Source: Bacteroidales bacterium (GTDB lineage: Bacteria > Bacteroidota > Bacteroidia > Bacteroidales > GCA-2748055). Taken from it: 45,615 bases of DNA. Made by a program: the position numbers and the translations under genes. Location of the stretch: positions 1-45,615 of the forward strand of contig JAOZUK010000020.1 of NCBI GenBank assembly GCA_029938715.1, in the 5' to 3' direction. Under the pieces are notes generated by a model. It ran no database searches, was not told the origin of the DNA, and saw only the letters and a list, made by a program, of their open reading frames with translations. Below, in pieces: positions 2,555 to 20,352 of the stretch; position 1 is the first letter of the stretch, and each line of letters starts with the position of its first letter.

Positions 2555-2754
2555 ATTTGATCGATTTACGAACCTTTGGAAGAAATAAATAAAGTTGCTC
2601 TGCTTTAGCTCTTTACCTTCAGATCTTCCTCCGGATCAGATGAATTTTGATACCTTGAAGCCAGTAACACCAACTTCTCAGTGGGTGCAAATGTATGCAT
2701 TGTTATTTGAATAACAAAACAAATCCGGGCAAATATTGCTATTTTTATGCACTT
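2555..2754. other. Divergent intergenic region
   Basis: This 200-base gap separates hydG (minus strand) from the secreted protein gene starting at 2755 (plus strand) and must hold both promoters. No convincing paired -33/-7 promoter, hairpin or small gene was found. The plus-strand reading frame of the downstream gene runs back to an ATG at 2695, but that extension would place charged and polar residues before an otherwise standard signal peptide, so it was treated as non-coding. Confidence 0.4.
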
Positions 2755-3678: not shown

Positions 3679-3698
3679 GATACAAACACCCGGAACCT

Positions 3699-4166: not shown

Positions 4167-4239
4167 TAGTACTTTACTTTCTCCAAAAAGTATCCTATAT
4201 TTATGGGGATAGCAAAGTCTTCATTAAGCACCATATATT

Positions 4240-5181: not shown

Positions 5182-5284
5182 AAATAAATTGAGGTGGGTA
5201 GCTGATCTGTGTATCCCTTAACACATTAACCCTTGAATGTGTTGTAGAACATTGTAAAGGGGTTATGTTACGTATGAAATCATA

Positions 5285-5292
5285 TATATTTG
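5285..5292 (+). promoter_or_regulatory. Possible -7 promoter box ahead of the sigma factor operon
   Basis: TATATTTG matches the Bacteroidota primary-sigma -7 consensus TAnnTTTG exactly. No good -33 TTTG partner was found at the usual 19-21 base distance, so the call rests on the -7 box and its position. It would start a transcript near 5299 with a leader of about 100 bases that contains the hairpin at 5357-5389. Confidence 0.3.
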
Positions 5293-5356
5293 TGGGTATT
5301 GCATTTGAAAAAGGTAGAATACTTTTCTACTTACTAACTAAAACTATTGCTATCAG

Positions 5357-5389
5357 GGCGGGTGATCTTTAATCACCTGCCTTTTTTTT
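5357..5389 (+). terminator. Hairpin with T8 tract just before the sigma factor start
   Basis: A 10-base-pair stem (5357-5366 with 5372-5381, one G-T pair) closes a 5-base loop and is followed by eight Ts at 5382-5389. This is the form of an intrinsic terminator. It could end transcription from the PLP enzyme gene. Because it lies only 9 bases before the sigma factor ATG, and downstream of a possible -7 box, it could instead act as an attenuator in the sigma factor leader. Confidence 0.7.
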
Positions 5390-5398
5390 GCTTTCAAA

Positions 5399-5980
5399 AT
5401 GATGAAACTTCCTAAAGAAGAATCCATTGTCAACGGGATTAGAAATCACGACTCAAAAATCCTGCAGCATGTATACGATACCCAGTATCCAATTATTGAA
5501 GGGTATATTATACATAACCAGGGAACCAGAGATCATGCAAAAGATGTATTTCAGGAGGCCATGATCATCGTCTACAAACGAATAAGATCGGGCAAGCTGG
5601 AACTAAGTTGCAAATTTGGAACCTACGTCTATGCCATCTGCAAGAACATATGGATTCAGGAAAGGAAAAAGTACCTGCTGCGTGCAGAAAAATTGAGACA
5701 ACAACCACTGATGGTAAACGATCCCGGACCTGCCGACGATCCATTACTCCAGAATCATCTGAACGAGCTCTTTAATAAGCACTTCAATGAGCTTAGTGAA
5801 GACTGTCAGAAGATTCTCTCTATGTATTTCAACAATTTTAATGTGGAGGAAATCCGTACTGCTATGGATTACAAAGACTTACATCATGCAGCAGATCGGA
5901 AATACCGATGCAAGAAAAGCCTTATCAAAAGGATTGTGAATGACCCCCTTTTTAAACAGCTGAAAAATGAACAACGTTGA
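5399..5980 (+). CDS. ECF-like RNA polymerase sigma factor
   Basis: This 193-residue protein has the two-domain layout of extracytoplasmic-function sigma factors. Region 2 spans about residues 20-92, with DHAKDVFQEAMIIVYKRI and FGTYVYAICKNIWIQ forming the core-binding and -10-recognition helices. Region 4 spans about 122-182, with LSEDCQKILSMYF and the helix-turn-helix that follows. Its stop overlaps the start of the next gene by 14 bases, the usual arrangement of sigma and anti-sigma partners. It likely directs transcription of its own cluster, including the peptide exporter, when released by the anti-sigma protein. Region 4 is rather polar and lysine-rich but no key helix appears to be missing. 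Confidence 0.88.
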   Translation: MMKLPKEESIVNGIRNHDSKILQHVYDTQYPIIEGYIIHNQGTRDHAKDVFQEAMIIVYKRIRSGKLELSCKFGTYVYAICKNIWIQERKKYLLRAEKLRQQPLMVNDPGPADDPLLQNHLNELFNKHFNELSEDCQKILSMYFNNFNVEEIRTAMDYKDLHHAADRKYRCKKSLIKRIVNDPLFKQLKNEQR

Positions 5981-6710
5981 TCATATCATTAAATATCTAT
6001 CGGGTGAAATGAACCTGGATGAGGCCAGCTCTTTTGAGGACAAGCTGGCATCCGACCATGGATTCAAGGAGCAATATGAGGAAGTCTCTGCTGCTTATAA
6101 CCTGATCAGGGACCAGTTACAGAAACAGGATCTGGCTGATTTCAAAAAAAACCTTTCGGAAGTAATGGAGAGGCCGGTAACCGAACAGCCAAACCCTCAC
6201 CGAAGCCTTCGATCCTGGTGGTTTCTCCCACTCTTGTTGGCAGGTAGCCTTGCCATACTCCTGGCCGTTTTCCTCTCCAATCCTGATGGGAGCAAAACTT
6301 TTTCACGATACTATCATCCCGAAGAAGATCCGGTTCTTCTTGCATTTAACCAGGGAACCAGGGGGGGGACAGAATCAGGAATCTTATACTTTCAACTGGG
6401 ACAGTATGCCAAAACAATGGAAGTGATGTCTGAACTTATTGCAAAGGACCAGGATAATCAATTGGCTCTGCTCTATTACTTACTGGCGTCTATGGAGACC
6501 GGAAAGCAGGATGAGGCCATGGAGAAACTTGCACCACTGGATCTGAGAATTGATCACCAGGTGGGACAGGCACTATACTGGTATAGAGCACTGGCACTTA
6601 TAAAATCGGGGAGATATGTGGAAGCCGATGCGCTTCTGCTTCCCCTGATACAACAACAGGGTCCCTACCAGACTAACGCCAGACGGTTACAAAAGAACTT
6701 GTTAAAATAA
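5967..6710 (+). CDS. Membrane anti-sigma-like protein with periplasmic TPR-like region
   Basis: A 247-residue protein that overlaps the sigma factor gene by 14 bases. Residues 1-70 form a small helical cytoplasmic part starting with a Bacteroidota anti-sigma-like opening (HIIKYLSGEMNLDEASSFE, compare the YLxGELSxxExxxFE pattern). A single membrane segment lies at about 84-104. The remaining part outside the membrane contains helix pairs with TPR character, for example YFQLGQYAKTMEVMSEL and YRALALIKSGRYVEADALL. The role inferred is to hold the sigma factor at the membrane and release it on an envelope signal sensed by the TPR part. No zinc-binding HxxxCxxC motif is present, so it is not a ZAS-type anti-sigma factor. 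Confidence 0.75.
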   Translation: MNNVDHIIKYLSGEMNLDEASSFEDKLASDHGFKEQYEEVSAAYNLIRDQLQKQDLADFKKNLSEVMERPVTEQPNPHRSLRSWWFLPLLLAGSLAILLAVFLSNPDGSKTFSRYYHPEEDPVLLAFNQGTRGGTESGILYFQLGQYAKTMEVMSELIAKDQDNQLALLYYLLASMETGKQDEAMEKLAPLDLRIDHQVGQALYWYRALALIKSGRYVEADALLLPLIQQQGPYQTNARRLQKNLLK

Positions 6711-6742
6711 TTCTTAATTTAGGGGCATAAGCAAACTGGTCT

Positions 6743-8929
6743 ATGCCCTCATTCCCTTTTTACAAGCAACTCGACGCTATGGATTGCGGTCCAACCTGCC
6801 TGAGAATGGTGGCCCGCTTTTATGGTAAACATTTTACACTTCAGACTCTCCGGGAGAAGTCTCATCTGAACCGGGAAGGGGTATCTATGCTGGGTATTGC
6901 TAAGGCTGCTGAAGATATCGGGATGCAATCCATGGGTGTCTCCCTCACCTGGGAAAGATTGCGCACTGAAGCCCCCCTGCCGGTCATTGTCCACTGGAAA
7001 CAGAATCACTTTGTGGTGGTCTATAAGATTAAGCGGGGCAGGGTGCATGTGGCCGATCCTGCATTTGGTCACACGGTGCTCTCCAAAGAGGAGTTTTTAA
7101 AAGGATGGATAAGCACCCGAACTGATGGTGAAGCCAAAGGTTCTGTCCTATTACTTCAACCCACTCCAGATTTTCTGAACCAGGAAGATGAACCTATAAA
7201 AAAGAGTGGATTCAGGTACTTATTTCGCTATCTGGCCCCATATAAGCGCTATTTGTATCATCTATTGCTGGGCGTTATCCTGGCCAGTATCATTCAGTTT
7301 ATTCTACCCTTTCTCTTCCAGTCCATGGTCGATTTTGGGATCACAAACCAGGATCTGCCATTTATCTATCTTATCCTGCTTTTCCAGTTTGTTTTGATCC
7401 TCTCTCAAATGGGACTCGACTTTATCCGCAGATGGATTCTGCTTCATCTGAGTACCCGGGTCAACATCGCTCTTATATCAGATTTTCTGGTCAAACTGAT
7501 GAAGCTACCTGTAGGGTTCTTTGACACAAAGCTTACAGGAGATCTTCTGCAACGAATAGGTGATCACAAAAGAATTGAATCATTTATGACCACCTCTTCA
7601 CTTACCATCCTCTTTTCCATGGTAAACCTGGTGGTTTTTGCATTAATCCTGGCCATATTCAGCATTAAGATCTTATTGATCTTCCTGGCCGGCTCCCTGC
7701 TCTACTTTATATGGATCTTTATCTTTATGAAACGCAGAAGAAGCCTCGATCAGAAATACTTCTCAAAGATGGCCGAAAACCAGAGCAAGTTGATCCAGAT
7801 CATTCACGGAATCAGGGAGATCAAGCTTAATAATGCGGAAAGGGTCAAACAGTGGGAGTGGAAAGAAATTCAGGCCAGTCTGTTCAGGGTCAATATGAAA
7901 ACCCTTTCGCTCAACCAGAATCAGGAAGCCGGTGGTGTATTTATCAATGAAACCAAGAATATCCTGATCAACGTTACTGCAGCCATAGCTGTTCTAAATG
8001 GAAATCTCACCCTGGGTACACTTCTGGCCATAAGTTATATACTGGGGCAGTTAAATGGTCCCATCGAACAGATGATATCTTTCTTTCACAGGGCACAGGA
8101 CGCCAAGATAAGCATGGAACGTCTCGGTGAAATTCATGATTCAGAAGATGAGTATCAGCAGGATGCCGGTATATCAGTTGTGCCTGTTATTGACCGTATT
8201 ATTGTAAGTAACCTGGACTTCACCTACCCTGGTGCCATAGCGCGCAATGTTCTGGAAGAGATCAATCTGACACTTAAAAAGGATACTGTTACTGCAATTG
8301 TGGGAGTAAGCGGGAGCGGCAAGACAACATTGGTGAAGCTGTTGCTGGGATTCTATCCTCCGGCCAATGGAGAGATCCGTGTGGGTGATATGAATATGCA
8401 GATGATGTCGCCCGACCTGTGGAGAGGAAACTGCGGAGTGGTGATGCAGGATGGATACATCTTCTCCGATACCATAGCAAAAAACGTTGCCCTTGGAGAA
8501 CAGGAGATAAATACCGATCAACTGCTCTATGCAGCAAGGATGGCCTGTATAGATGATTTTATTGATCAGCTTCCACTGGGCTATAATACTGTAATAGGAC
8601 AGGAAGGTTTGACATTGAGTGGTGGTGAAGAGCAAAGAATCCTTATTGCCAGGGCCATCTATAAAAATCCGGGGTTTCTGTTTCTGGATGAAGGAACCAG
8701 TGCACTGGATGCCAATAATGAGCGAAGGATCATGGAGAACCTCCAACTGGTATTCAGTGGCAAAACGGTGGTAATTGTGGCACATCGATTAAGTACAGTA
8801 AAAAATGCAGACCAGATCATCGTATTGGACCAGGGCCGGATTGTCGAAGAAGGTAAACACAATGACTTGATTGCCAAAAAAGGACACTACTTCAACCTGG
8901 TGAGAAATCAGCTGGAACTTGGTAGTTAG
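6743..8929 (+). CDS. Peptidase-containing ABC transporter (C39 bacteriocin-type exporter)
   Basis: A 728-residue single-chain exporter with three domains. The N-terminal C39 peptidase (1 to about 135) has Q9, catalytic C15 in DAMDCGPTC, H89 in KQNHFVVV and D105 in VADPA, so it should cut double-glycine leader peptides. Six membrane segments follow at about 165-435. The C-terminal ATPase has Walker A GVSGSGKTT near 520, signature LSGGEEQR near 625, Walker B FLFLDEGTSALD near 645 and the H-loop AHRLST. The family exports peptides across the inner membrane, usually with a HlyD-like adaptor; none is nearby, nor is an obvious precursor peptide. It lies 32 bases after the anti-sigma gene and is probably controlled by that sigma factor. 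Confidence 0.93.
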   Translation: MPSFPFYKQLDAMDCGPTCLRMVARFYGKHFTLQTLREKSHLNREGVSMLGIAKAAEDIGMQSMGVSLTWERLRTEAPLPVIVHWKQNHFVVVYKIKRGRVHVADPAFGHTVLSKEEFLKGWISTRTDGEAKGSVLLLQPTPDFLNQEDEPIKKSGFRYLFRYLAPYKRYLYHLLLGVILASIIQFILPFLFQSMVDFGITNQDLPFIYLILLFQFVLILSQMGLDFIRRWILLHLSTRVNIALISDFLVKLMKLPVGFFDTKLTGDLLQRIGDHKRIESFMTTSSLTILFSMVNLVVFALILAIFSIKILLIFLAGSLLYFIWIFIFMKRRRSLDQKYFSKMAENQSKLIQIIHGIREIKLNNAERVKQWEWKEIQASLFRVNMKTLSLNQNQEAGGVFINETKNILINVTAAIAVLNGNLTLGTLLAISYILGQLNGPIEQMISFFHRAQDAKISMERLGEIHDSEDEYQQDAGISVVPVIDRIIVSNLDFTYPGAIARNVLEEINLTLKKDTVTAIVGVSGSGKTTLVKLLLGFYPPANGEIRVGDMNMQMMSPDLWRGNCGVVMQDGYIFSDTIAKNVALGEQEINTDQLLYAARMACIDDFIDQLPLGYNTVIGQEGLTLSGGEEQRILIARAIYKNPGFLFLDEGTSALDANNERRIMENLQLVFSGKTVVIVAHRLSTVKNADQIIVLDQGRIVEEGKHNDLIAKKGHYFNLVRNQLELGS

Positions 8930-8935
8930 TGCTCA

Positions 8936-9289
8936 ATGCAACCCATGGAAAATGATTGGAAGAAAAGGCTTGGTGTAGTATATTCGACAAACTCCGAATA
9001 CACTTTTGAAACAGACGGGAAGGAGAAGCAGAAAACAGCAGAACCTTCACAGCAAAAGCTCTATGTTAAACTCGATCGGAAAAATCGCAGAGGAAAGAGT
9101 GTTACCCTTGTGGAAGGATTTGTGGGCACCGAGAATGATCTGAAAGAACTGGGAAAAGAGCTGAAGAGCAAATGTGGAGTGGGTGGTTCAGCCAAGGAGG
9201 GGCTGATCCTTCTTCAGGGGGACTTCAGGGACCGGGTAATCTCTCTACTGAAAGAAAAAGGTTTTAATGTTAAGCGATCAGGTGGTTAG
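8936..9289 (+). CDS. SUI1/eIF1-family translation factor (YciH-like)
   Basis: A 117-residue protein. The C-terminal 75 residues are a SUI1 domain, shown by GKSVTLVEGF, LGKELKSKCGVGGSAK and LILLQGDFRDRV, the last matching the conserved QGDHR-type segment. Bacterial members are thought to act at translation initiation or on ribosomes, with no essential role known. The N-terminal 40 residues are charged and probably disordered. A second start at 8945 (MENDWKK) is possible. The gene begins 6 bases after the ABC exporter stop and overlaps the ankyrin gene by 23 bases, so it is transcribed with this cluster although its job there is unclear. Confidence 0.9.
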   Translation: MQPMENDWKKRLGVVYSTNSEYTFETDGKEKQKTAEPSQQKLYVKLDRKNRRGKSVTLVEGFVGTENDLKELGKELKSKCGVGGSAKEGLILLQGDFRDRVISLLKEKGFNVKRSGG

Positions 9290-10718
9290 TCTATATTTCA
9301 GAATTATACGAACACTGGTCCTGAGTCTGCTGCTGGGTTTTTTGTCTGGCCTGAGTTGCCGGGCCCAGGATGCAGAGCTTTTAGTGCCTGCAGATACCTC
9401 CTACTTCCAGGCAGGGGATGACAACTGGAACCTGGTGGAATCGGTGCTTAAGAAGCATCCTTCCAATGTACTTTTGTTGCTCAAACGAGGGGCCAATCCA
9501 AATTCCAGGTCTGACGGAGGTATGACTGCACTGATGTTCGCCGCCGAAATTGGTGACAGCATGTTGGTGAAGCTGCTCGTCCTGAACGGAGCAGACCTGG
9601 AACTCACCTATGTGGAAGGAACCACTCCCCTGATGGTGGCAATTCTTAATCAGCATTTCGAAGTAGTTCACTTTCTCCTGCGAAAAGGCTCAAATCCCAA
9701 TCATCAGGACGACGTGAAAGGTACTCCACTTATCTATGCTGCCGCCATCAATGATTACCAGATGGCTGATCTGCTGCTCTATTACGGAGCATCAGATACA
9801 CTCAGTGACCGGGAAGGCAATACACCCTTAATGACTGCTGTCTTTTTTGGGAACCTGGAGACTGCGGATGTGCTCCTTCAAAACGGATTGAATCCCGATG
9901 AGCCCGATAAAGATAAAAATACGCCATTGATGATTGCCGCACAACTGGGAAACAGGGAGATGATCAATCTGCTGCTGGAGTATGAAGCAGGCCTGGAAAA
10001 GATAAATAAAAAGAATTTCACCCCACTTGCACATGCCATCAGGTTTGACCAGGATAGTGCGGCAATGGTTTTGATCGACAGTGGGGCCAATGTGAACCAT
10101 TTGATCACTGCAAAAGAGAACCTGTACGACCTGGCCATGAAGCAGTATCAAAAAGCCATTCTTAAAAAGCTAAAGGAGAAAGGAGCCGGTCCCACCAAAC
10201 AGCCTAACTTTTCTGAATTTCAGCTGGGATGGGGAAACTCCTTTCGCAGCAATGAGCATATGATGCAGGTAAGGGTGTCCTGGGTGGATGATAAATTTGG
10301 ATTTTTTGCTGAAACAGGGGTAGATTTTCGCCCCACCCTGAGAAAGGTCCAGGTTCAGATGGAAGATCATCTGATCCATCAATACAGAGAATCCAGGTGG
10401 GTCTGGACCCATGGAGCAGGAAAATACTTCAAGCTTGCCCGTGATAAATCAAATATTGTATACGGACTCTATGCAGGTGCATATGGAATGCTTTCAATGC
10501 CAGATTACAGAGGGACCAGTGACCACCCAAAATTTCACTACTCTCTGGCGTTGTCGGGAGGGGTATACATGAAAGGTCGCTATGCAGGTATTAAAGCAGG
10601 ACCAGAACTTTACACTTACGGCACCCTACTTGAAGAGCCATGGAAAATCAACATCACTCTGTTTGCAAGGATCGTCTATAAGAAAGGCACACATGTTTAC
10701 AAGGATATTCAATACTAA
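9267..10718 (+). CDS. Exported ankyrin-repeat protein with C-terminal barrel-like domain
   Basis: A 483-residue protein. A hydrophobic signal segment covers about residues 11-33 (ending SCRAQ). About six to seven ankyrin repeats follow at residues 55-300; the repeat pattern is clear in GMTALMFAAEIGDSMLVKLL, GTTPLMVAI, NTPLMTAVFFGNLETADVLL and NTPLMIAAQLGNREMINLLL. From about residue 315 the protein changes to alternating strands (FSEFQLGWGNSFRSNEHMMQ, FGFFAETGVDF, KAGPELYTYGT) that look like an outer membrane barrel. The ATG at 9267 lies inside the SUI1 gene; a GTG at 9282 is an alternative start. The role is probably protein binding at the periplasmic face of the outer membrane; this is inference. 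Confidence 0.8.
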   Translation: MLSDQVVSLYFRIIRTLVLSLLLGFLSGLSCRAQDAELLVPADTSYFQAGDDNWNLVESVLKKHPSNVLLLLKRGANPNSRSDGGMTALMFAAEIGDSMLVKLLVLNGADLELTYVEGTTPLMVAILNQHFEVVHFLLRKGSNPNHQDDVKGTPLIYAAAINDYQMADLLLYYGASDTLSDREGNTPLMTAVFFGNLETADVLLQNGLNPDEPDKDKNTPLMIAAQLGNREMINLLLEYEAGLEKINKKNFTPLAHAIRFDQDSAAMVLIDSGANVNHLITAKENLYDLAMKQYQKAILKKLKEKGAGPTKQPNFSEFQLGWGNSFRSNEHMMQVRVSWVDDKFGFFAETGVDFRPTLRKVQVQMEDHLIHQYRESRWVWTHGAGKYFKLARDKSNIVYGLYAGAYGMLSMPDYRGTSDHPKFHYSLALSGGVYMKGRYAGIKAGPELYTYGTLLEEPWKINITLFARIVYKKGTHVYKDIQY

Positions 10719-10722
10719 TCCT

Positions 10723-11157
10723 ATGAAGATGAGGATCACTGTACTAATGGCAATCCTGCTACTGGTGTTCGTCTCAGGAAATTTTTCGGGTTGCGAAACT
10801 GAAGACTGGATGTTTGAGGTAAATTGTAACGACTGTTACGGGTACATGCCCGACAGTGCCAATCTTATTATTTACGTCACCATCGATGCCGAAAATGACT
10901 CGGTTCCTCTAACTTTTTATAAGGGTGATTATGAAAATGGTGAGATCGAATGGCAGGACACAGCCACCACCGACGAATTTTTTCTCTACTCGGAGATGGA
11001 CCGGACATATACCGTTACTGCCACCTATAAGTCGGGGGATGAAACAGTGGTTGCCTTTGATGAGGATGAAATGAACCTTTCCGATGGTTCGGCTGAATGT
11101 GGATCTCTATGTTACATTGTGAAAGGGGGCATATTAGATGTCCGGTTATTGAAATAG
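10723..11157 (+). CDS. Small lipoprotein of unknown function
   Basis: The frame is open from 10582, but that extension lies inside the ankyrin gene; the ATG at 10723, 4 bases after the ankyrin stop, gives a proper lipoprotein signal (MKMRITVLMAILLLVFVSG) with the lipidation cysteine in NFSGCETED. The 144-residue protein has three more cysteine pairs (NCNDCYG and ECGSLCY) that could form disulfides and a beta-sandwich-like middle. It is strongly acidic. No known family was recognised. It is the last gene of the sigma factor cluster. Confidence 0.72.
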   Translation: MKMRITVLMAILLLVFVSGNFSGCETEDWMFEVNCNDCYGYMPDSANLIIYVTIDAENDSVPLTFYKGDYENGEIEWQDTATTDEFFLYSEMDRTYTVTATYKSGDETVVAFDEDEMNLSDGSAECGSLCYIVKGGILDVRLLK

Positions 11158-11273
11158 TCCCGGGCACCGGTAGTTGTGATATCAGACCCGGTTGTTTGAT
11201 GATGAAAAAAAGAGATGATTCATAGAAGCATAACCATATATTTTCAATATTTTAGGGTCAATTGTAAGAACGT

Positions 11274-14200
11274 ATGGGTTTCCGACAAACTGTAATTGTA
11301 TCGTTACTGTTTCTGCTTGCTACCGGGATTTTATCAGCCCAGCCAAATAAGAACGGGGTACCCATCGTTACTAACTACGAGCATTCTGTCACCAAAGGCA
11401 GCGAACAAAACTGGTGTATCACCCAGGACCACAGAGGGGTTATCTACGTTGGCAATAATAACAAAGGAGTCCTTGAGTATGACGGTGTTGAGTGGAGAAG
11501 AATCCCGGTTCCCAGAGATCCTATGGTCTGTTCTGTAATTACGGGCCAAGATGGAGTTGTGTATGTAGGAGCTAGTTCAGAATTTGGTTACCTGTTACCT
11601 GATAGGTATGGGAAGATGATATTTCGCTCGCTGTCAGATACCATCGACCAGAAAAAATTACCCTTTGGAGAGGTTTGGAAAATCTATTACCTGGAAGGAA
11701 AGGTCTATTTTTGCAGCTTCAATTATATCTTTATCTATGATCATCTAAAAGAAACCCTCACCCACATAGAGACTCCTGAATATACTTACTTCTCTTTTCT
11801 AATTGACGGAAACATCTATTTATCTGCCTGGGAACAAGGATTGATGCGTTATCAGAATGATCAGTTTGTTGTGGTCCCCGGAGGAGAATTCTTTATAAAT
11901 AAAAGCATTACCGGATTGGTGAAGTTTGATAACACCAGAGTTTTGGCAGGTACATTCAGTAATGGTATTTACCTGTTTGATACGCAAAGCGGTTTTCTGG
12001 ATGAGGGCTTTATGGACCAGGAGCTTACAGAATATTTAAAGCAGGGGACCATTACAAATATCCAGGCCATGGAGGAGGATTTTGCAGTAGCCCGTCTTAA
12101 TCATGGGGTGGTCATTCTTAGCAGAGATGGGAAAGCTACTGAGATTGTCACTAAGAAAGAGGAACTTATAGATGAAGATGCCACCTTTGCATATTACAAC
12201 GAAAGGTTGGAAAAAACAAGTCCATTATGGATAACTAATTTTATGGGTGTCAGTAAGTTGGAACCCTCTAATCCATTCAGGGTGTTTAATGAGTCCTCCG
12301 GTTTCGAAGATTTTGTAACTGGTATTAAGTACTTCAATGGAACCCTGTTTATCTCGACTTTTAATGGTCTCTACTATAAATCATCGAGTCCAACAGGCAC
12401 CCGGTTTATCCCGGTTAAGGGCACTGAAGGGGAAACTATTTATCACTTGCTGGAATTCAATCCGTCGCGTTACCGGAATTTCCTGATTGCTTCTTCTGAG
12501 GCAACGACTTTTGTTATAGATTCCCGTATGGGTGTTTCAATTCTCAAAAATTTAATCCAGAATCCTCCAGAGAGTTTTGCCGACCAGGAGGAGTATGCCG
12601 GACAATTTATCGTCCAGGATCCGGAAAATTCTGAAATTATCTACACTGGTCGAAGTCAGATCTTAGGTTTACAGTATCACCGGGGACTTTGGCGGGAGAT
12701 CTCCAGGATGAAGGATTTCAATGAAGAGATACTTCTCAATAAGGTAATTGATAAGTATGGCTACCTATGGACCAGCTCCGATAACTGGGTGGTCCGGATC
12801 GACATCAAAGAGAAGACCGATCCTTCGCGAAAATTCATGAATAGTGAGAAAGGGCTTCCTTCCGACGAAAACAACCGCGTATTCCTTGATCCAGACACAA
12901 AAGAGGTTTTATTGGGTACAAGGGATGGCTTTTACAGGTATAATTACTTTCACGATACAATTTATCGCGATACCATTCACAACAGGATTCTTCCCCAGGG
13001 TAAAAACCTGATAATGACGTTTTACCAGGATCACGACGGGGATTACTGGTACTCTTTTGAAAATGAACACAAAGGCTGGAGCGAATTGGTAGCTGAAGAT
13101 CGGGGTTCAGGATTGAGAATACTGCATGATAAAACCTTTCAGAGATTGGCTAATACCTCCACCGATGTAATTTACAGCAGCGGAGAAAATGAGGTATGGT
13201 TTGGGAAATCAGATAGACTTTATCATTTTGATAAATCCTTTAAAAGAAACGATACCTTGCTGTTCCCCATACTGATCAGGCAGGTTACGCTAAATACCGA
13301 TTCTGTACTCTTTTATGGCACCCATTTTACAGAGGACCATCAGGGTCGTCTTTGTGCAAGTCTTGTCCAATCAGCCGATAGACGTCCAGAAATCAAACAC
13401 AGTTTAAATAATGTGTACTTCAGGTGGGCAGCTCCTTTCTTTGAGCAGGAGGAGGAGATAACTTACAGTTACAAGCTGGAAGGCTTTGGGGAGGATTGGT
13501 CCAGTTGGGAAAAGACTCCCTTTAAGGAGTTCACCAATCTGCCCCATGGATCGTACAGGCTTCTGGTAAAAGCACAAAATGTGTATGGAAATGAAAGCAT
13601 TCCTGCCTCCTACTCCTTTACAATCCTACGACCCTGGTATGCCCATATCCTTGCATATCTCGTCTATATCCTTCTTGCAGCAATAATAGTTTATATCATT
13701 ATCAAACTATACACCCGCCGGTTAAAACAAGAGAATCTTCGTCTGGAAGGGATAATAGCGGAGAGGACTGCTGAAATTCGAAAACAGAAAGAAGAATTAA
13801 CCGACAGCATTGAATATGCCAGCCGGATCCAACGGGCCATGCTACCTCCAGAAAAATTAATAGAAGAACATAATATTGAGCATTTTATCCTGTTCCGACC
13901 CAGGGACATTGTAAGTGGTGATTTTTACTGGATTGGTAATAAGAAAGGCAAGTTGCTCATTGTTGCAGCTGATTGTACCGGCCATGGTGTCCCAGGCGCC
14001 TTTATGAGTATGCTTGGAATGACTTTCCTGGATGAGATTGTGATCAAATCAGAGGTAACCAATACCGGTGAAATTCTGGACCAATTGAGAGAGCATGTGA
14101 TCACTTCACTGAGACAGTCGGGTAAAAACAACGAAAATTCGACCAGAGATGGAATGGACCTGGCCATGATATCAATAGATATCCCCAAACGTGAATTCCA

Positions 14201-14633
14201 GTTCTCCGGAGCATACAATCCTCTATACCTGGTAAGAAAACTTAAGCGAAACGAAAAAGCTAAGCTAAACAAAGGAGAAGAACTGGATCTTCCCAGGGGC
14301 TCTGTACATAACGACAATCATCTTTTAATACAGGTCCGGTCCGACCAGATGCCCATTGGTATATCGGAGAGAACAGTCCCTTTCACTGCCTCGACTTTTA
14401 AAGATGACGGGTATAGTATCTACATGTTTTCGGATGGTTTCCTTGATCAGTTTGGGGGTCCCCGTGGGAAAAAGTTCATGTCAAGGAACTTCAAAAAACT
14501 GATCCTTGAACTGCAATCCATAGCCCTGAAGGATCAGGGAGCTGCCCTGGATAAAGTACTTACGGGTTGGATGGGCGAGATCAGCCAGATTGATGATATT
14601 TTAGTGATGGGATTAAAACTGAACGACAATTGA
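11274..14633 (+). CDS. Propeller/Y_Y_Y sensor protein with SpoIIE-type phosphatase
   Basis: A 1119-residue membrane sensor. Order of parts: signal peptide (1-23, ending LSAQ); periplasmic two-component-regulator propeller repeats (about 30-690), for example the GVLEYDGVEWRRI and GNIYLSAWEQGLMRY-type blades; a Y_Y_Y domain at about 725-780 (YSYKLEGFGEDWSSW, LPHGSYRLLVKAQN); one membrane helix at about 785-808; a coiled coil to about 855; and a SpoIIE/PP2C phosphatase to the end. Metal-binding aspartates are all visible in VSGDFYW, AADCTGHGVPG, FSDGFLDQFGG and IDDILVMG, so it should be active. Bacteroidota propeller receptors normally carry a histidine kinase; here a serine/threonine phosphatase takes that place, comparable to SiaA or RsbU outputs. 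It overlaps the next gene by 4 bases. Confidence 0.9.
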   Translation: MGFRQTVIVSLLFLLATGILSAQPNKNGVPIVTNYEHSVTKGSEQNWCITQDHRGVIYVGNNNKGVLEYDGVEWRRIPVPRDPMVCSVITGQDGVVYVGASSEFGYLLPDRYGKMIFRSLSDTIDQKKLPFGEVWKIYYLEGKVYFCSFNYIFIYDHLKETLTHIETPEYTYFSFLIDGNIYLSAWEQGLMRYQNDQFVVVPGGEFFINKSITGLVKFDNTRVLAGTFSNGIYLFDTQSGFLDEGFMDQELTEYLKQGTITNIQAMEEDFAVARLNHGVVILSRDGKATEIVTKKEELIDEDATFAYYNERLEKTSPLWITNFMGVSKLEPSNPFRVFNESSGFEDFVTGIKYFNGTLFISTFNGLYYKSSSPTGTRFIPVKGTEGETIYHLLEFNPSRYRNFLIASSEATTFVIDSRMGVSILKNLIQNPPESFADQEEYAGQFIVQDPENSEIIYTGRSQILGLQYHRGLWREISRMKDFNEEILLNKVIDKYGYLWTSSDNWVVRIDIKEKTDPSRKFMNSEKGLPSDENNRVFLDPDTKEVLLGTRDGFYRYNYFHDTIYRDTIHNRILPQGKNLIMTFYQDHDGDYWYSFENEHKGWSELVAEDRGSGLRILHDKTFQRLANTSTDVIYSSGENEVWFGKSDRLYHFDKSFKRNDTLLFPILIRQVTLNTDSVLFYGTHFTEDHQGRLCASLVQSADRRPEIKHSLNNVYFRWAAPFFEQEEEITYSYKLEGFGEDWSSWEKTPFKEFTNLPHGSYRLLVKAQNVYGNESIPASYSFTILRPWYAHILAYLVYILLAAIIVYIIIKLYTRRLKQENLRLEGIIAERTAEIRKQKEELTDSIEYASRIQRAMLPPEKLIEEHNIEHFILFRPRDIVSGDFYWIGNKKGKLLIVAADCTGHGVPGAFMSMLGMTFLDEIVIKSEVTNTGEILDQLREHVITSLRQSGKNNENSTRDGMDLAMISIDIPKREFQFSGAYNPLYLVRKLKRNEKAKLNKGEELDLPRGSVHNDNHLLIQVRSDQMPIGISERTVPFTASTFKDDGYSIYMFSDGFLDQFGGPRGKKFMSRNFKKLILELQSIALKDQGAALDKVLTGWMGEISQIDDILVMGLKLNDN

Positions 14634-15433
14634 AAACATCTGCTCTCACCAGGGAGAAGCTGCTTGAACAGAGACGGGAGCTAATGGCCAGCCTGAAGTA
14701 CGCCAGCTTTATTCAGAGGGCTGTACTACCCAACCAACGCTATATGGAGAACATGCTCAATGATTTCTTTGTACTCCACAAACCAAGGGATATAGTGAGT
14801 GGTGACTTCTACTACTGTGCCCGTAAGGAAGAGTATCTGGTGGTGGCAGCCGGTGATTGTACAGGTCATGGTGTACCAGGTGCGCTGATGAGTATCATGG
14901 GAATCTCGTTTTTAAATGAGATTCTGAGCAGCAGGGGGCCCATCACTTCCAGCAGAATTCTGAATCTTCTTCGGGAGCGGGTAATGAGAGCCCTTCACCA
15001 GCGTGGGCATGAACTTGAAAATAAGGATGCCATGGACATGGCCCTTTGCATATTTAATCCTAAAACCAAAGAACTTCAGTACTCTGGGGCAAATAATCCC
15101 CTGTATCACATAAGAAACAAAGTCCTTACCGAGATTAAAGCGGATAAAATGCCAGTGGGAATCAATGCCATCGAAGAGAATTCTTTCACCAATCATACAA
15201 TGCAACTTAAAACCGGTGATATCGTATACATATTTTCGGATGGCTATCCTGATCAATTTGGCGGACCCGATGACAAGAAATTTAAATATGGGCCCTATAA
15301 AGAATTGCTCATTGAGATCTCGAATCAGTCTATGGAGGATCAACAGAAAAAGTTGGACCAGGTGATTACTGCCTGGAAGGGAGATGCCCCACAGGTAGAT
15401 GACATGCTGATTTTTGGAATAAAATTTGTTTAA
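14630..15433 (+). CDS. Soluble SpoIIE-type serine/threonine phosphatase
   Basis: A 267-residue phosphatase that begins in an ATGA overlap with the sensor gene. It has a short helical lead, then a full PP2C SpoIIE domain with VSGDFYY, AGDCTGHGVPGALMS, FSDGYPDQFGG and VDDMLIFG, so all metal ligands are kept. It matches the phosphatase half of the preceding protein at many positions (RAVLPNQ versus RAMLPPE, KMPVGIN versus QMPIGIS), which suggests a tandem duplication followed by loss of the sensor part. Family members remove phosphate from small regulator proteins in partner-switching pathways. It has no membrane segment and may supply constitutive activity or form a dimer with its neighbour. 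Confidence 0.9.
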   Translation: MKTSALTREKLLEQRRELMASLKYASFIQRAVLPNQRYMENMLNDFFVLHKPRDIVSGDFYYCARKEEYLVVAAGDCTGHGVPGALMSIMGISFLNEILSSRGPITSSRILNLLRERVMRALHQRGHELENKDAMDMALCIFNPKTKELQYSGANNPLYHIRNKVLTEIKADKMPVGINAIEENSFTNHTMQLKTGDIVYIFSDGYPDQFGGPDDKKFKYGPYKELLIEISNQSMEDQQKKLDQVITAWKGDAPQVDDMLIFGIKFV

Positions 15434-15443
15434 AGCATATGAG

Positions 15444-17771
15444 ATGCAGTTAGTTGCGTTTAGAGTACAAAACTTCAGATCTATAGTGGATACAGGCTGG
15501 CACCAGCTGGCTCATGATAACATCACCAGTCTTATTGGTCAGAATGAGTCGGGAAAGACATCCATTCTTGAGGCTCTGAAAGCATTTCATGATGGCCGCC
15601 TTATTGAAGATATGCTGAGAAGCGATCTTTCACTTCCTGTGGTTAGCTGTAAATTCAGTTTCCAGTTTTCCGATATCGAAAACCTTATCGATAAAAAGAA
15701 GCTCGATCCGGAGATCCGCAAATTAATCAATACAGTTGAAACCATATCTCTTTCAAGAAAATGGGAGGATGATATGGACTCCTTTATGGTTATGGGGGAT
15801 GAATTGCAGGAGTTATACAACGAAACCTACGATCATATTAAGCAAAGGGAGTTAAAAGTCCTGGAACATCTGGAACATCTCAACAGTGAGATAGCTGCTG
15901 CATCCAAGAATCTGAATAAGGCCAACGAGGAGTTGGAGTGGACCAAGGAGAAAGTGGAATCGGTGAAGCATCGGATGAATGAAATTAAACGCAACATCAG
16001 GAAATTTCCTTCAAAAGATAAAAAAGAGGAACTTAAGCAGGAGTTCGATCAGGAGGAGGAGATGCTTGAGCAACTCAATCAGACCCTGGAGCAAAAAAGG
16101 TCTAAACAGGAAGAGAAAAGTGACATTCTTGAGGCACTGGCTGAGAAACAGGGAGTATGTGACAAACTTAACGAACTTAAGGAGCAAACCGGTCTTCTGA
16201 AGGAAGAGCTTTTGGATGTCCAGGAACAGTTAAAACTGGTGCTTCAGATGACCGGGATGTTTCCTTCAGAAAAGGAGCAAAGAGCGGCAGAAATAAGAGA
16301 GGATATCTCACGCACTGACATTGAGCAGCTGAAGGATGAACTGTCTCATTTACAATCTGATCACAGCATTCATATGATTGCGGTGGAATTGGTTTTTGAG
16401 GGAATGAGTATCGAAAGTGCCATGACTGGCGCCAGGACCGAGTATGAATCGAGAAAAAAGTTTTATAGCTCCAATGAACTGGCAGAAGAGATATTCAAAA
16501 TATTACCCGATTTCGAGCTATTCGAAGATTTCAGCTCTCTCCTACCCAACCGCATCGATTTAGAGGACATTATCAAAAGCAATAAACGGGCCGAAGGTTA
16601 TAAAGCTGCCATTAACTTCCTGACCATAACAGGACTCGAATACTCTTTTTTTCAACAACCTTCGAGTCGCATCCTGAAACAGAAGATCGAAAACCTAAAC
16701 GGGGAGCTTACCCTTAATTTTCAAGATTTCTGGAGACAGAATGTGGGTAAGAAAAATAAGATCAAAATCAACTTTGAGCTCTCACACTACGATCATACCC
16801 ATCCGGACAAAAGTGGCAAACCATTCATTGAATTCTGGATTAAGGATGAAAAGGAACGCCTATACCCAAAACAGCGAAGCCGCGGAGTAAGGTGGTTTCT
16901 CTCTTTCTTCCTGGAGCTAAAAGCCACAGCCATGGACAAAAGCCAGCGAAACAAGGTGCTACTCATCGATGAACCGGGAGTAAGCCTCCACGCCAGGGCA
17001 CAGGAAGATGTATTAAAAGTATTTGATGATATCAGTGATCAGATTCAGATTATCTATACCACCCATTCACCTCACCTGATCGATGTGGATAAGTTATACC
17101 GCATCCTTGCGGTACAAAGAGCTGTGGAGGATGATATGAAGAGTGAATCCCTGGTCTTTAGTGCCCGATCGCTCAAATCTGCTACTGCTGATACCCTTTC
17201 GCCCATCTATTCGACCATGGGCGCCCGATTAAACCAGCAGGAGATCATAAAGTCATTCAACAATGTGATCGTTAAGGACCTTGCAAACTTTTACTTTATG
17301 AAAGCCATTGTTGCTCTTACCGGTTTTGAAAAAGAGTGCTATTTTTTACCATCTTCGGGTGCTGAGAGTATACCCACCATGGTTAATATTCTCATTGGAT
17401 GGGGTATCGACTATATTATTCTTAATTTTGGAAATTCCCAGGAACAGAATGTGTATGGTAATTTAATGAAGGAACAATTTGACAACAAGATTGATCTGGC
17501 CAAGGAACAGATGATATTGATGGAAGATTTCCTGGATGCTGAGGATCTCTTTTCCACCATAGATTTTAAAAAGTTTATCATAAAAGTACGTGAAGGAATT
17601 ACAGTAAAGAACTCAGAATACGTAAAAGACAATAACTTTGCCAGGACCATACTTGGCTCCAATTTCCTGCAGGAGGTCAACAGTGGGAAAGTGGTATTCA
17701 AGAACTTTGACGATGAAACCCGCCAAAATATGAACCACTGTATGCAGATGCTCTCCGGATTGCTTAAGTAA
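15444..17771 (+). CDS. OLD/SMC-like AAA ATPase with coiled coil and degenerate Toprim-like tail
   Basis: The start was set at the ATG at 15444 (MQLVAFRVQNFRSI), the usual opening of this group; an in-frame ATG at 15426 overlaps the phosphatase gene. The 775-residue protein has Walker A GQNESGKTS near residue 32, a charged coiled coil from about 125 to 285, an ABC-like signature region near 480 (QRSRGVRWFLSF), Walker B VLLIDEPGVSLH near 505 and TTHSPHLID near 540. The tail at about 605-775 is where OLD proteins carry a Toprim nuclease; the expected glutamate and DxD are not visible (GAESIPTM, ILNFGNSQEQ), so nuclease activity is doubtful. Tight spacing to the phosphatase suggests shared function. 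It could be a DNA-end or membrane-associated ATPase; the role is unknown. Confidence 0.85.
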   Translation: MQLVAFRVQNFRSIVDTGWHQLAHDNITSLIGQNESGKTSILEALKAFHDGRLIEDMLRSDLSLPVVSCKFSFQFSDIENLIDKKKLDPEIRKLINTVETISLSRKWEDDMDSFMVMGDELQELYNETYDHIKQRELKVLEHLEHLNSEIAAASKNLNKANEELEWTKEKVESVKHRMNEIKRNIRKFPSKDKKEELKQEFDQEEEMLEQLNQTLEQKRSKQEEKSDILEALAEKQGVCDKLNELKEQTGLLKEELLDVQEQLKLVLQMTGMFPSEKEQRAAEIREDISRTDIEQLKDELSHLQSDHSIHMIAVELVFEGMSIESAMTGARTEYESRKKFYSSNELAEEIFKILPDFELFEDFSSLLPNRIDLEDIIKSNKRAEGYKAAINFLTITGLEYSFFQQPSSRILKQKIENLNGELTLNFQDFWRQNVGKKNKIKINFELSHYDHTHPDKSGKPFIEFWIKDEKERLYPKQRSRGVRWFLSFFLELKATAMDKSQRNKVLLIDEPGVSLHARAQEDVLKVFDDISDQIQIIYTTHSPHLIDVDKLYRILAVQRAVEDDMKSESLVFSARSLKSATADTLSPIYSTMGARLNQQEIIKSFNNVIVKDLANFYFMKAIVALTGFEKECYFLPSSGAESIPTMVNILIGWGIDYIILNFGNSQEQNVYGNLMKEQFDNKIDLAKEQMILMEDFLDAEDLFSTIDFKKFIIKVREGITVKNSEYVKDNNFARTILGSNFLQEVNSGKVVFKNFDDETRQNMNHCMQMLSGLLK

Positions 17772-17790
17772 CATAAAATCATATAAATAG

Positions 17791-18858
17791 ATGAAAGTTC
17801 ATTTTTTCAGCATCTCTCTAATTGTCTTAAACTTTTTTGTTTCTCAATTATCAGGGCAGGACACGCTGTTGTTGTTTCACCCCACAGCTTATAATCTGGA
17901 AGTGATTCAGAACCTCATGGATGAGGATATACTCTCTCTGGAAGAGTACCACATCCTTGGAGTGTACCACGAATATGAAACCTATGATTATGAAAAAGCG
18001 GAGGAATATATGCGTCTGCACCCCACTGAACACTTTAGTTTGCTGGAGGTTGCCGGTACGCTGGAGCCTGGAAATATTTTTACAATAAATCCATGTACTC
18101 CGCAATTCATCTCTCTTTTCAGCAAGTCGCAAGGTGCCCTGTTTATGGGCGGGCCCGACATACCCCCTGTAACATACCATGAAAAGGTTCACCTGCTCAC
18201 TTCGGTCACCGATCCGTTCAGGCACTACTTTGAACTATCCTACCTGTTTCACCTGCTGGGGGGAAGCCAGGATTACAGTTGGATTCCCTATTTAGAGGGA
18301 AATCAAAGCTACCTGTTAAGCGGGATCTGCCTGGGAATGCAAACCATGAATGTGGCCACAGGGGGCACCTTGGTGCAGGATATCCCCACTGAGATATATA
18401 ACATCTGGAGTGCCGAAGATCTCCTCAATGGGGATCCGGACCAGATGCACAGGAATTATGCAGATAAGGTAAATACCGGGTGTGATGCTCCCACTTCCTA
18501 TCATTTCCACAGGGTAAATCTGGAGAAAAAGGAGATCCTAACGAAAGGGATTGGATTTAAGAGCCGCGTGGCCCCCCTGGTACTCAGCTCCCATCATCAG
18601 GCTCTTGAGAAACTTGGGACAGGTTGGGTGATAGTTGCCACCTCCATGGACGGAAAGATTGTCGAAGCAATTCGACACAGCAAATATCCTCATGTGCTGG
18701 GTGTTCAGTTCCATCCGGAAAAGCCCGGCCTTTTCGACCCCACCATTGAGCACCCACAAAATTGCAACAGTACCATCAATTTCCAGGAGTCCATTAAAGA
18801 TACTGACTCCCATGCTTTTCACCTGGCATACTGGAGTTATCTGGCATCAATTTTATGA
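17791..18858 (+). CDS. Exported class-I glutamine-amidotransferase-like hydrolase (peptidase C26-like)
   Basis: A 355-residue protein with a signal peptide (1 to about 22, ending LSGQ). The C-terminal half has the class-I amidotransferase triad: C180 in SGICLGMQ, H308 and E310 in GVQFHPEKPG. This is the layout of gamma-glutamyl-hydrolase/PuuD-like enzymes (C26), which cut gamma-glutamyl bonds; no synthetase partner is fused, which fits a stand-alone hydrolase. The first 130 residues are a less familiar lead. Export is unusual for C26 proteins apart from secreted gamma-glutamyl hydrolases. The gene starts 19 bases after the ATPase stop and may belong to that transcript; its substrate is unknown. 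Confidence 0.8.
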   Translation: MKVHFFSISLIVLNFFVSQLSGQDTLLLFHPTAYNLEVIQNLMDEDILSLEEYHILGVYHEYETYDYEKAEEYMRLHPTEHFSLLEVAGTLEPGNIFTINPCTPQFISLFSKSQGALFMGGPDIPPVTYHEKVHLLTSVTDPFRHYFELSYLFHLLGGSQDYSWIPYLEGNQSYLLSGICLGMQTMNVATGGTLVQDIPTEIYNIWSAEDLLNGDPDQMHRNYADKVNTGCDAPTSYHFHRVNLEKKEILTKGIGFKSRVAPLVLSSHHQALEKLGTGWVIVATSMDGKIVEAIRHSKYPHVLGVQFHPEKPGLFDPTIEHPQNCNSTINFQESIKDTDSHAFHLAYWSYLASIL

Positions 18859-18863
18859 ACTGA

Positions 18864-19238
18864 CTATTCAATCTCGATAAAACTGATATCCAGATTCAGG
18901 ATGGAGGAGTAATACTCTCCCCGTTCAAGGATATCATCATCGCCCTCTTCATACACCCAATTGATCTTCAGGTCATAACCGTCGTTATCTACCTCTTTTA
19001 ATTTCTTTAGAAGCCTCAACATGTATTTGGAGGTTCCACTGTTCAGGTACTCCATTTCAATATCTACTTCGGTGTAGGATGGCGGAGATGAGGCATAAGC
19101 GATAATCCAATCCAAAATATCCTCATAGAAAAGAGATACATCCTCAGGGATGGACCTGCCCTTGAATCTGATCTTACCGGACGGATCCAGCAATACATAT
19201 GGTGTTTTCTGAGTAGGTTGAAACTCTAGTTTATCCAT
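18864..19238 (-). CDS. SiaC-like regulatory phosphoprotein (DUF1987)
   Basis: A 124-residue protein matching the DUF1987/SiaC family in length and pattern: an opening strand with TPYVLLDPSGKIRFKGRSIPED, a helix YEDILDWIIAY, then EMEYLNSGTSKYMLRLLKKL and an acidic tail. In Pseudomonas SiaC is phosphorylated by SiaB and dephosphorylated by the SpoIIE phosphatase SiaA. The usual phospho-acceptor region reads roughly YFNTSSxK; here it is YLNSGTSK (residues 64-71), so S67, T69 or S70 could be the acceptor. It is convergent with the C26 gene, 5 bases apart, and near two SpoIIE phosphatases that are plausible partners. No kinase or cyclase is in view. Confidence 0.85.
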   Translation of the reverse strand: MDKLEFQPTQKTPYVLLDPSGKIRFKGRSIPEDVSLFYEDILDWIIAYASSPPSYTEVDIEMEYLNSGTSKYMLRLLKKLKEVDNDGYDLKINWVYEEGDDDILERGEYYSSILNLDISFIEIE

Positions 19239-19332: not shown

Positions 19333-20352
19333 TCAGAAGTACATCTTAGCCATGGGTGCAATATCCTCAGAGGCAAACTCCCCCTTTAGGAAACGATAAT
19401 ACCCGGTAATGGCAATCATGGCTGCATTGTCGGTAGTATAGCTAAGTGGAGGAATAAATATGTCCCAATTCTGTTTTCCTGCCTCCTGGACTATTGCACT
19501 TCGCAACGCAGAATTTGCGGACACACCACCGGCCAGGGCAATCTGATTGATTCCCTTTGTTGTTGCAGCTCTCCTGAGTTTATTCATCAATATATCAACT
19601 ATGGTTTTTTGAAGTGAAGCTGCCAGATCGGCTTTGTGCTGCTCCACAAATGCGGGATTCTCCTTAAGCCGATCTCTCAGAAAATAGAGAAATGACGTTT
19701 TCAAACCACTGAATGAGTAATCGAATCCCTGCAACCTGGGCTTGTTAAAGGTAAACTTGTGGGGATCACCTTCAGAAGCCAATCTGTCCAGATGAGGTCC
19801 GCCCGGGTAGGGCAATCCCAGCAACTTGGCACATTTGTCAAATGCCTCCCCTGCTGCATCATCAATGGTACGGCCAATAATTTCCATCTCATAGGGGTCC
19901 TTCACCACCACAAGCTGGGAATGCCCCCCTGAGACGAGCAAACATAAGAACGGAAATTCGGGTACCCTCTCGGCGCCTTTCTCCGACTGAATGAAATGTA
20001 CCAGAATATGTGCCTGCAGATGGTTTACCTCGATCATAGGTATACCAAGTGCAGCTGTGAAACCTTTAGTGAAGGAGGTCCCAACCAACAACGACCCCAT
20101 GAGTCCCGGACCTCTGGTAAAAGCCACAGCATCAATCTGATCTCTGGAAATGCCTGCAAGTTTCAATGCCCTGTCAACCACAGGAACAATATTCTGTTGA
20201 TGAGCCCTGGAGGCAAGTTCAGGAACTACTCCCCCATATTGAATATGCACATCCTGAGTGGCCACCACGTTTGAGAGCAGCTCCCTATCCCTCATCACCG
20301 CGGCGGATGTATCATCACAAGAGGATTCAATCCCCAGAATTACAGTACCCAT
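19333..20352 (-). CDS. tsaD: tRNA threonylcarbamoyladenosine synthase subunit TsaD
   Basis: TsaD transfers the threonylcarbamoyl group to A37 of ANN-decoding tRNAs together with TsaB and TsaE. The 339-residue length and motifs are standard: GIESSCDDTSAAV at the start, the metal-binding pair H111 and H115 in VNHLQAHILVHF, the nucleotide-binding LLVSGGHSQL, and ALAGGVSANS near the C-terminus. The start at 20352 is supported by the conserved MGTVILGIESS opening. It faces away from the tamB-like gene across only 26 bases, so the two promoters must lie partly inside the coding regions. Confidence 0.97.
   Translation of the reverse strand: MGTVILGIESSCDDTSAAVMRDRELLSNVVATQDVHIQYGGVVPELASRAHQQNIVPVVDRALKLAGISRDQIDAVAFTRGPGLMGSLLVGTSFTKGFTAALGIPMIEVNHLQAHILVHFIQSEKGAERVPEFPFLCLLVSGGHSQLVVVKDPYEMEIIGRTIDDAAGEAFDKCAKLLGLPYPGGPHLDRLASEGDPHKFTFNKPRLQGFDYSFSGLKTSFLYFLRDRLKENPAFVEQHKADLAASLQKTIVDILMNKLRRAATTKGINQIALAGGVSANSALRSAIVQEAGKQNWDIFIPPLSYTTDNAAMIAITGYYRFLKGEFASEDIAPMAKMYF

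What the first reader, a model, noticed from the sequence alone, without database searches (positions are those of the whole stretch)
11274..19238. Possible undescribed sensor-phosphatase / SMC-like ATPase / SiaC signalling module
Four same-strand genes in tight succession encode a periplasmic-propeller sensor with SpoIIE phosphatase output, a second SpoIIE phosphatase (4-base overlap), an OLD/SMC-like ATPase with coiled coil (about 10 bases from the phosphatase) and an exported C26-like hydrolase (19 bases further). A SiaC-like phosphoprotein converges on them. In the known SiaABC pathway a SpoIIE phosphatase acts on SiaC, so the parts of a partner-switching circuit are here, but joined to an ATPase not known from that pathway. 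The sensor uses a receptor type that normally feeds histidine kinases.
Basis: partly seen in the sequence, partly recalled or inferred. Interest (0 to 1): 0.78.

Follow-up and report, generated by a model that had tools for sequence, protein, structure and literature searches.

The report
Phosphatase paired with defence-like ATPase
In a group of uncultured Bacteroidota, a signalling phosphatase without a sensor of its own is encoded right beside an ATPase from a family known for phage defence, whose DNA-cutting site has mostly decayed, which suggests that a former defence enzyme now feeds signals into a protein switch.

Summary
The conserved unit is smaller: a stand-alone SiaA-type phosphatase ('PP2', 14630-15433) followed by an OLD-like ATPase (15444-17771). 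Among 80 public loci with this ATPase, PP2 is directly upstream in 78 of 78 that hold the upstream DNA, across 27 identity clusters in which no other neighbour is universal. In 295 genomes of the order, 18 carry the ATPase, and the same 18 carry the only complete stand-alone phosphatases in the (cut) match list. Ten of ten other such phosphatases scanned have a fused input domain. The ATP site is invariant in 61 of 61 proteins; the nuclease triad is complete in 6 of 61 and absent in the window. The gene is present in 18 of 18 genomes of the genus. Best reading: the ATPase is the separate sensor of PP2, which acts on a SiaC-family protein. The pairing is shown, the mechanism inferred. Sensor, C26 hydrolase and adjacent SiaC are conserved only in the window's own lineage; propeller-SpoIIE fusions are common.

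The parts
14630..15433 (+). PP2: stand-alone SiaA-type PP2C (SpoIIE) phosphatase, 267 aa, no input domain; core of the unit
   Evidence: PF07228 E 4.7e-22; closest solved structure SiaA-PP2C 6k4e; NCBIfam SiaA, domain part only, 174 bits against a cut-off of 700; D59, D76, D204, D258 invariant in 62 rows
14651..14725 (+). N-terminal helix (residues 8-32) of PP2, proposed input contact
   Evidence: model; role inferred
15444..17771 (+). OLD-like ABC ATPase with long helical insert; core of the unit
   Evidence: AAA_15 E 7.1e-25; OLD, GajA and SMC folds; PP2 directly upstream in 78 of 78 loci
15537..15560 (+). Walker A of the ATPase (residues 32-39)
   Evidence: G32, G37, K38, T39 identical in 61 of 61
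15798..16397 (+). helical/coiled-coil insert (residues 119-318)
   Evidence: model; low sequence conservation
17253..17768 (+). TOPRIM-like C-terminal domain (about residues 604-775) with decayed nuclease triad (K611, F662, N664 in the window)
11274..14633 (+). propeller/Y_Y_Y sensor with SpoIIE output; lineage-specific neighbour
   Evidence: missing beside the pair in L035, L064, L074, L095
17791..18858 (+). exported C26-like hydrolase; lineage-specific neighbour
   Evidence: PF07722 E 4.6e-27; missing in L037, L075, L076
18864..19238 (-). SiaC-family phosphoprotein; candidate substrate, lineage-specific neighbour; Ser67 at the place of P. aeruginosa SiaC T68
   Evidence: PF09345 E 6.8e-31; alignment to 6kko; motif LNSGTSK in 17 of 17 orthologues

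Best explanation
A two-gene signalling unit. PP2 is a SiaA-type phosphatase without a sensor of its own. The adjacent OLD-like ATPase, whose nuclease centre has mostly decayed while its ATP site is kept, is its separate input module: on meeting its signal (inferred: a DNA state, because OLD and SMC/Rad50-type heads act on DNA) it binds or hydrolyses ATP, changes its coiled-coil or dimer state and turns PP2 on or off through PP2's N-terminal and switch helices. PP2 then dephosphorylates a SiaC-family protein, a partner switch balanced by SiaB-type kinases. Shown: conserved adjacency; one clade of sensor-less phosphatases tied to one group of ATPases; kept ATP and phosphatase residues; lost nuclease residues; co-occurrence with SiaC. 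Inferred: physical contact, direction of control, signal and substrate.
For: PP2 directly upstream of the ATPase in 78 of 78 loci able to show it, 27 clusters and in 17 of 17 stretches from the order sample (the two sets overlap). The 18 ATPase genomes are the 18 with complete stand-alone PP2 among the listed matches. The 34 ATPase-linked PP2 are split from 25 fused domains by one branch, 99/97. 10 of 10 other SiaA-like phosphatases scanned have fused input domains. Walker and H-loop residues identical in 61 of 61, TOPRIM triad in 6 of 61. SiaA-type fold. SiaC in all 18 ATPase genomes and in 119 of 119 with SiaA-like phosphatases. PP2 and ATPase distances correlate (Spearman 0.72 over 27 clusters, 0 of 500 permutations as high). 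Precedent for control through a regulatory helix and switch helices in SpoIIE (PMC5468089, passages).
Against: No complex, activity or interaction was tested. The distance correlation is expected from shared descent alone, and the nearest neighbour agrees in only 49 of 70 loci. The adjacent SiaC is confined to one cluster. Only 5 PP2-specific positions stand out. A few lineages keep the whole TOPRIM triad (6 of 61), so nuclease activity may persist there. The phosphatase list was cut and scored 8 candidates a genome, and two short SpoIIE frames at contig edges of the own genome (C412, C629) cannot be judged. A tyrosine recombinase gene lies next to the ATPase in 6 loci of 4 clusters.
Confidence: 0.5

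Rival explanations
1. An anti-phage defence pair, now chromosomal: the OLD/AriA-like ATPase senses phage and the phosphatase is regulator or effector.
For: PADLOC: AriA E 1.1e-25, Old E 4.5e-20 on the ATPase; outside relatives sit in phage or defence-like contexts, L147 between portal and capsid genes, L151 beside an AAA_21-DUF4435 gene; a tyrosine recombinase gene is adjacent in 6 loci of 4 clusters.
Against: Present in 18 of 18 genomes of the genus and 22 of 28 of the family; 18 of the 19 genomes of six family codes in the lists; stable synteny; mostly ordinary chromosomal neighbours among 10 scanned; nuclease triad lost in 55 of 61; PP2 has no PADLOC match.
Confidence: 0.2
2. The phosphatase acts on the ATPase itself (or on a third protein), not on SiaC; the ATPase is the output of the pair, for example in DNA maintenance.
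For: The pair is constant whereas SiaC is adjacent in only 1 of 27 clusters; SMC/OLD folds.
Against: Phosphatase is closest to SiaA and that group co-occurs with SiaC.
Confidence: 0.18
3. One reading: sensor, PP2, ATPase, C26 and SiaC form one module in the window's family.
For: Tight spacing; SiaC beside the pair in 16 of 16 own-cluster loci that hold that side; two SiaA-like phosphatase domains and one SiaC at one locus.
Against: Sensor, C26 and pair are each missing in some family members while SiaC stays.
Confidence: 0.1
4. Chance neighbourhood held together by slow rearrangement.
For: Synteny blocks persist within families.
Against: Across 27 clusters all other neighbours change and the pair does not separate.
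Confidence: 0.02

Closest known systems
SiaABCD pathway of Pseudomonas aeruginosa (SiaA phosphatase, SiaB kinase, SiaC, SiaD)
   Same: PP2 is closest to the SiaA PP2C domain; a SiaC-family gene lies at the window locus; SiaA acts on SiaC T68 (PMC7647112, passages), and the window SiaC has Ser67 there
   Different: PP2 lacks SiaA's N-terminal part (its match starts at model position 401 of 658), sits beside an ATPase, and no SiaB gene is at the locus (own-genome SiaB matches are on C255, C749 and C67)
OLD family ATPase-nucleases, classes 1-4 (P2 Old, Gabija GajA, retron OLD, PARIS AriA/AriB)
   Same: ABC head, insert, TOPRIM-like C-terminus; OLD and GajA structures align to residue 775; PADLOC Old/AriA matches
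   Different: partner is a PP2C phosphatase, a context not among the classes described in the passages read of PMC10568477; nuclease triad decayed in 55 of 61; stable chromosomal gene
RsbU/RsbT of Bacillus subtilis (recalled, from no call)
   Same: a PP2C phosphatase controlled by a separate ATP-binding-fold protein
   Different: RsbT is a small GHKL-type protein of the stressosome, unrelated to OLD/SMC ATPases
Propeller/Y_Y_Y-SpoIIE, TPR-SpoIIE and similar fused phosphatases of Bacteroidota
   Same: same SiaA-like catalytic domain
   Different: sensor fused in one chain; a separate side of the tree

Membership tests
SiaA (SiaABC pathway phosphatase) | SiaA-type PP2C domain | tested here: met
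   6k4e 185.8 bits against 26.8 for the next structure; TM 0.84/0.91; NCBIfam SiaA domain match, below the full-length cut-off
SiaA (SiaABC pathway phosphatase) | metal-site aspartates | tested here: met
   invariant in 62 rows
SiaA (SiaABC pathway phosphatase) | fused N-terminal sensor part | tested here: not met
   267 aa only; SiaA model matched from position 401 of 658
SiaABC locus | siaB and siaC in the same cluster | tested here: not met
   SiaC adjacent in 1 of 27 clusters; SiaB matches of the own genome lie on other contigs
SiaABC pathway | dephosphorylation of SiaC | not testable with these tools
   needs an enzyme assay
OLD family | ABC ATPase with intact Walker A/B and H-loop | tested here: met
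   61 of 61
OLD family | C-terminal TOPRIM fold | tested here: inconclusive
   6p74 and 8sm3 align up to residue 775 at rmsd 7.4-7.5; domain not searched alone; motif alignment consistent
OLD family | TOPRIM metal-binding residues (nuclease) | tested here: not met
   window has none of three; 6 of 61 relatives have all
OLD classes 1-4 | class partner (none, UvrD-like helicase, reverse transcriptase, split TOPRIM) | tested here: not met
   constant partner is PP2; no other gene family recurs in all 27 clusters
anti-phage defence system | patchy, mobile distribution | tested here: not met
   18 of 18 genomes of the genus
anti-phage defence system | protection against phage | not testable with these tools
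   needs a phage assay

The most novel reading that the evidence does not exclude
A phage-defence OLD nuclease was domesticated: it lost DNA cutting, kept ATP-driven sensing of DNA, and became the dedicated separate sensor of a SiaA-type phosphatase, so that genome state or foreign DNA is read out through a SiaC partner switch. This would be a further OLD context and a new kind of input for SpoIIE/SiaA phosphatases.
Probability: 0.35. Interest if true: 0.82.

Novelty: new variant of a known kind. Interest (0 to 1): 0.62.

Why it matters
SpoIIE/SiaA-type phosphatases usually carry their sensor in the same chain. A conserved pair in which an OLD/SMC-like ATPase takes that place would show how a defence-type ATPase can be recruited into signalling, would add a phosphatase context to the OLD family, and is small enough to reconstitute. 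In the listings no title or abstract start describes such a pair; listings were capped (15 of 234, 12 of 17), and most subscription papers are not in that library.

Tried and rejected
Whole-module reading (sensor, C26, SiaC as parts of the conserved unit): rejected; kept as a rival for the window's family.

Defence reading: strong PADLOC domain hits, but genus-wide presence and nuclease decay; kept as a rival.

A third recurrent component: an about 660-aa protein lies upstream of PP2 in 9 loci of 8 clusters, with an OmpA-like gene before it in 8 of these loci; Pfam named no family in the one 660-aa protein scanned, NCBIfam only weak CpoB/YbgF matches. Not taken as a part.

PP2-specific residues as docking site: only 5 positions against 13 fused domains; two (89, 119) fall in helices 82-100 and 107-122 that I take for the switch helices; too few for evidence. 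Promoter-like sites 16 against 17.7 in shuffles, terminator-like 11 against 7.7: uninformative. Plasmids: 86 records match, none covering 80% of the query, all under 60% identity. Phylum sample: 3 of 395 genomes including the own; the two others are distant and partial, without PP2 in the held flank. The TOPRIM part was not searched alone; VIA rows are dominated by the head.

Rows dropped before counts: L073 and L082 start inside the ATPase (80 to 78). Of the 20 stretches, L050, L053 and L054 lack the 5' side (17 left). L088 fell out of the neighbour clustering (79 of 80). Six of 24 genomes match only by a 26-28% identical OLD-type protein and were not counted as orthologues. A3 took 60 and A4 61 of the 62 intact, under-85%-identical loci, plus the window (L066 and L079 left out of A3, L121 of A4). 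One search took 10 of the 13 loci L205-L217. 96 of 176 relatives confirmed were not shown.
Full report
What is there. The window carries on the plus strand a Y_Y_Y/propeller sensor with SpoIIE output (11274-14633), a second, stand-alone SpoIIE phosphatase PP2 (14630-15433), an AAA_15/SMC-like ATPase (15444-17771) and an exported C26-like hydrolase (17791-18858). A SiaC-family gene (18864-19238) converges on them, then tsaD (19333-20352, minus) and a TamB-like gene (the TamB name is recalled, not from a family search). The genome held has 945 contigs, 97.36% completeness and 4.3% contamination.

The conserved unit. The ATPase was sought in 295 genomes of the order: 24 match, 6 of them only by an OLD-type protein of 26-28% identity, leaving 18. 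In the stretches fetched, PP2 is directly upstream in 17 of the 17 that hold the 5' side. A profile scan of genome contigs confirmed 176 relatives and kept 80. PP2 is directly upstream on the same strand in 78 of the 78 with upstream DNA; median gap 11.5 bases, range -71 to 260 by mechanical starts. At 60% ATPase identity these are 27 clusters, and PP2 and ATPase are the only gene families found in all of them. None of 14 more distant OLD-like relatives has PP2 in its held flank, but for nine of them the flank is only about 0.6-1.2 kb. The 80 record titles all say MAG; one is named Chlorobiota and one Spirochaetes, the rest Bacteroidota or its members.

Reciprocity. With the PP2 profile, 119 of 295 genomes match at E 1e-50. 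Among the listed matches the complete stand-alone frames (272-305 aa) are exactly 18, each on the ATPase's contig; the others lie in frames of 392 aa or more, except a 241-aa one in G256. The list was cut and at most 8 candidates a genome were scored, so a weak orphan could be missed; in the own genome two SpoIIE frames of 297 and 229 aa at contig edges cannot be judged. Ten of 13 fetched other phosphatases were scanned with Pfam: all ten carry an input domain (Y_Y_Y/propeller 5, TPR 3, receiver 1, cyclic-nucleotide 1). In a tree of 59 domains the 34 ATPase-linked PP2 form one side of a branch against 25 fused ones, support 99/97; the window's sensor falls among the fused ones. PP2 and ATPase identities correlate over 27 clusters (Spearman 0.72, 0 of 500 permutations as high), the nearest neighbour is the same in 49 of 70 loci; common descent alone could give this.

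The phosphatase. Its profile finds SiaA-PP2C 6k4e at 185.8 bits, the next structure at 26.8. Its model (pLDDT 88.4) matches 6k4e at TM 0.84/0.91, the next structure at 0.69 by query length. NCBIfam gives SiaA positions 401-657. The metal-site aspartates are invariant in 62 rows. SiaA dephosphorylates SiaC at T68 (PMC7647112, abstract and passages). In the order sample SiaC is in 119 of 119 genomes with a SiaA-like phosphatase and in 3 of 176 without. A SiaC-family substrate for PP2 is therefore likely, but which SiaC is open: genomes hold 1 to 14 scored copies (scoring stopped at 14), the own genome 5, with 3 SiaB matches.

The adjacent SiaC. It has Ser67 where P. aeruginosa SiaC has T68 (read), in a motif identical in 17 of 17 orthologues. 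It lies beside the pair in all 16 own-cluster loci that hold that side and in no other cluster within the held flanks; L044, outside the cluster, has one about 10 kb away. In family members without the ATPase, SiaC adjoins the sensor in G706, is one frame away from it in G707, lies near tsaD in G704 and is missing beside tsaD in G700 and G701; the G703 contig ends too soon. So SiaC belongs to the locus rather than to the ATPase.

The ATPase. The model (pLDDT 83.4, pTM 0.68) has an ABC head split by helices 119-318 and a C-terminal alpha/beta domain. Foldseek's best match is GajA (8u7i_A, E 6.9e-12). VIA-align lists SMC heads first (Z 19.1), OLD 6p74 third (Z 18.9, rmsd 7.4, 359 aligned) and GajA 8sm3 at rank 35 (Z 16.8, rmsd 7.5, 393 aligned). 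G32, G37, K38, T39, D509, E510 and H541 are identical in 61 of 61. Of the TOPRIM residues the glutamate is kept in 27, the two aspartates in 8 and 7, all three in 6 of 61; the window has none. The sites were placed by alignment, not by a structure. Relatives from viral contigs L146 and L147 keep the glutamate and acidic residues, and L147 lies between phage portal and capsid genes; they are the nearest outside relatives in the tree, but the collections were searched unevenly, so an origin from mobile OLD genes is a suggestion. Another stretch of the same domain (E700, D701, D707-F-K, R716-x-G-I) is nearly invariant, so the domain is still under selection.

Inheritance. 18 of 18 genomes of the genus and 22 of 28 of the family hold the ATPase. 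In the order sample the 18 positive genomes fall into six family codes, and the only other genome of these codes in the lists is G248; family members without any phosphatase or SiaC match would not be listed there. Ten neighbour proteins of other clusters were scanned: mostly ordinary chromosomal functions (PfkB, tRNA methyltransferase, ABC-F-like, OmpA-like), but also a tyrosine recombinase whose relatives lie next to the ATPase in 6 loci of 4 clusters. The genus pattern is that of a stable cellular system rather than a mobile island.

Mechanism. The simplest reading is that the ATPase stands in for PP2's missing sensor. In SpoIIE a long regulatory helix contacts the switch helices, and dimerisation activates the phosphatase (PMC5468089, passages). 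PP2 keeps a helix 8-32 before the catalytic domain, and the ATPase offers a long helical insert. The signal would be what OLD/SMC-type heads handle, DNA; that is inference.

Novelty. PMC10568477 describes OLD classes 1-3 and mentions class 4 (PARIS); the word phosphatase does not occur in its text (passages). Searches pairing SpoIIE/PP2C with OLD, TOPRIM or AAA terms showed no such pair in titles or abstract starts. Both parts are known kinds; their constant union appears not to be described. I rate it a new variant of a known kind.

Noticed in passing
L093, L098, L100, L101, L105, L108, L120, L134 (and a fragment in L111), upstream of PP2: An OmpA-like gene and an about 660-aa exported TPR-like protein lie upstream of PP2 on the same strand in 8 loci (the 660-aa one also as a fragment in L111), 8 clusters; possible further partner, unexplained.
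   Followed up: partly
window 6743-11157: C39-peptidase ABC exporter, SUI1-family protein, ankyrin-repeat protein and a small exported protein form a syntenic block upstream in the own family.
   Followed up: no
L147 (viral contig) 5656-11660: An OLD relative of the ATPase lies between a phage portal gene and a capsid gene.
   Followed up: no
L151 (viral contig) 8001-11472: An OLD relative lies next to a fused AAA_21-DUF4435 gene, PARIS-like.
   Followed up: no
L144 101-4255 (minus): A distant OLD-like gene sits between a trigger-factor-like gene and a ClpP gene.
   Followed up: no
G000:C749 (L056) 2707-5726; G000:C805 (L057): The own genome has a separate SiaA-like/SiaC/SiaB cluster at C749 and two SiaC genes about 1 kb apart at C805.
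   Followed up: no
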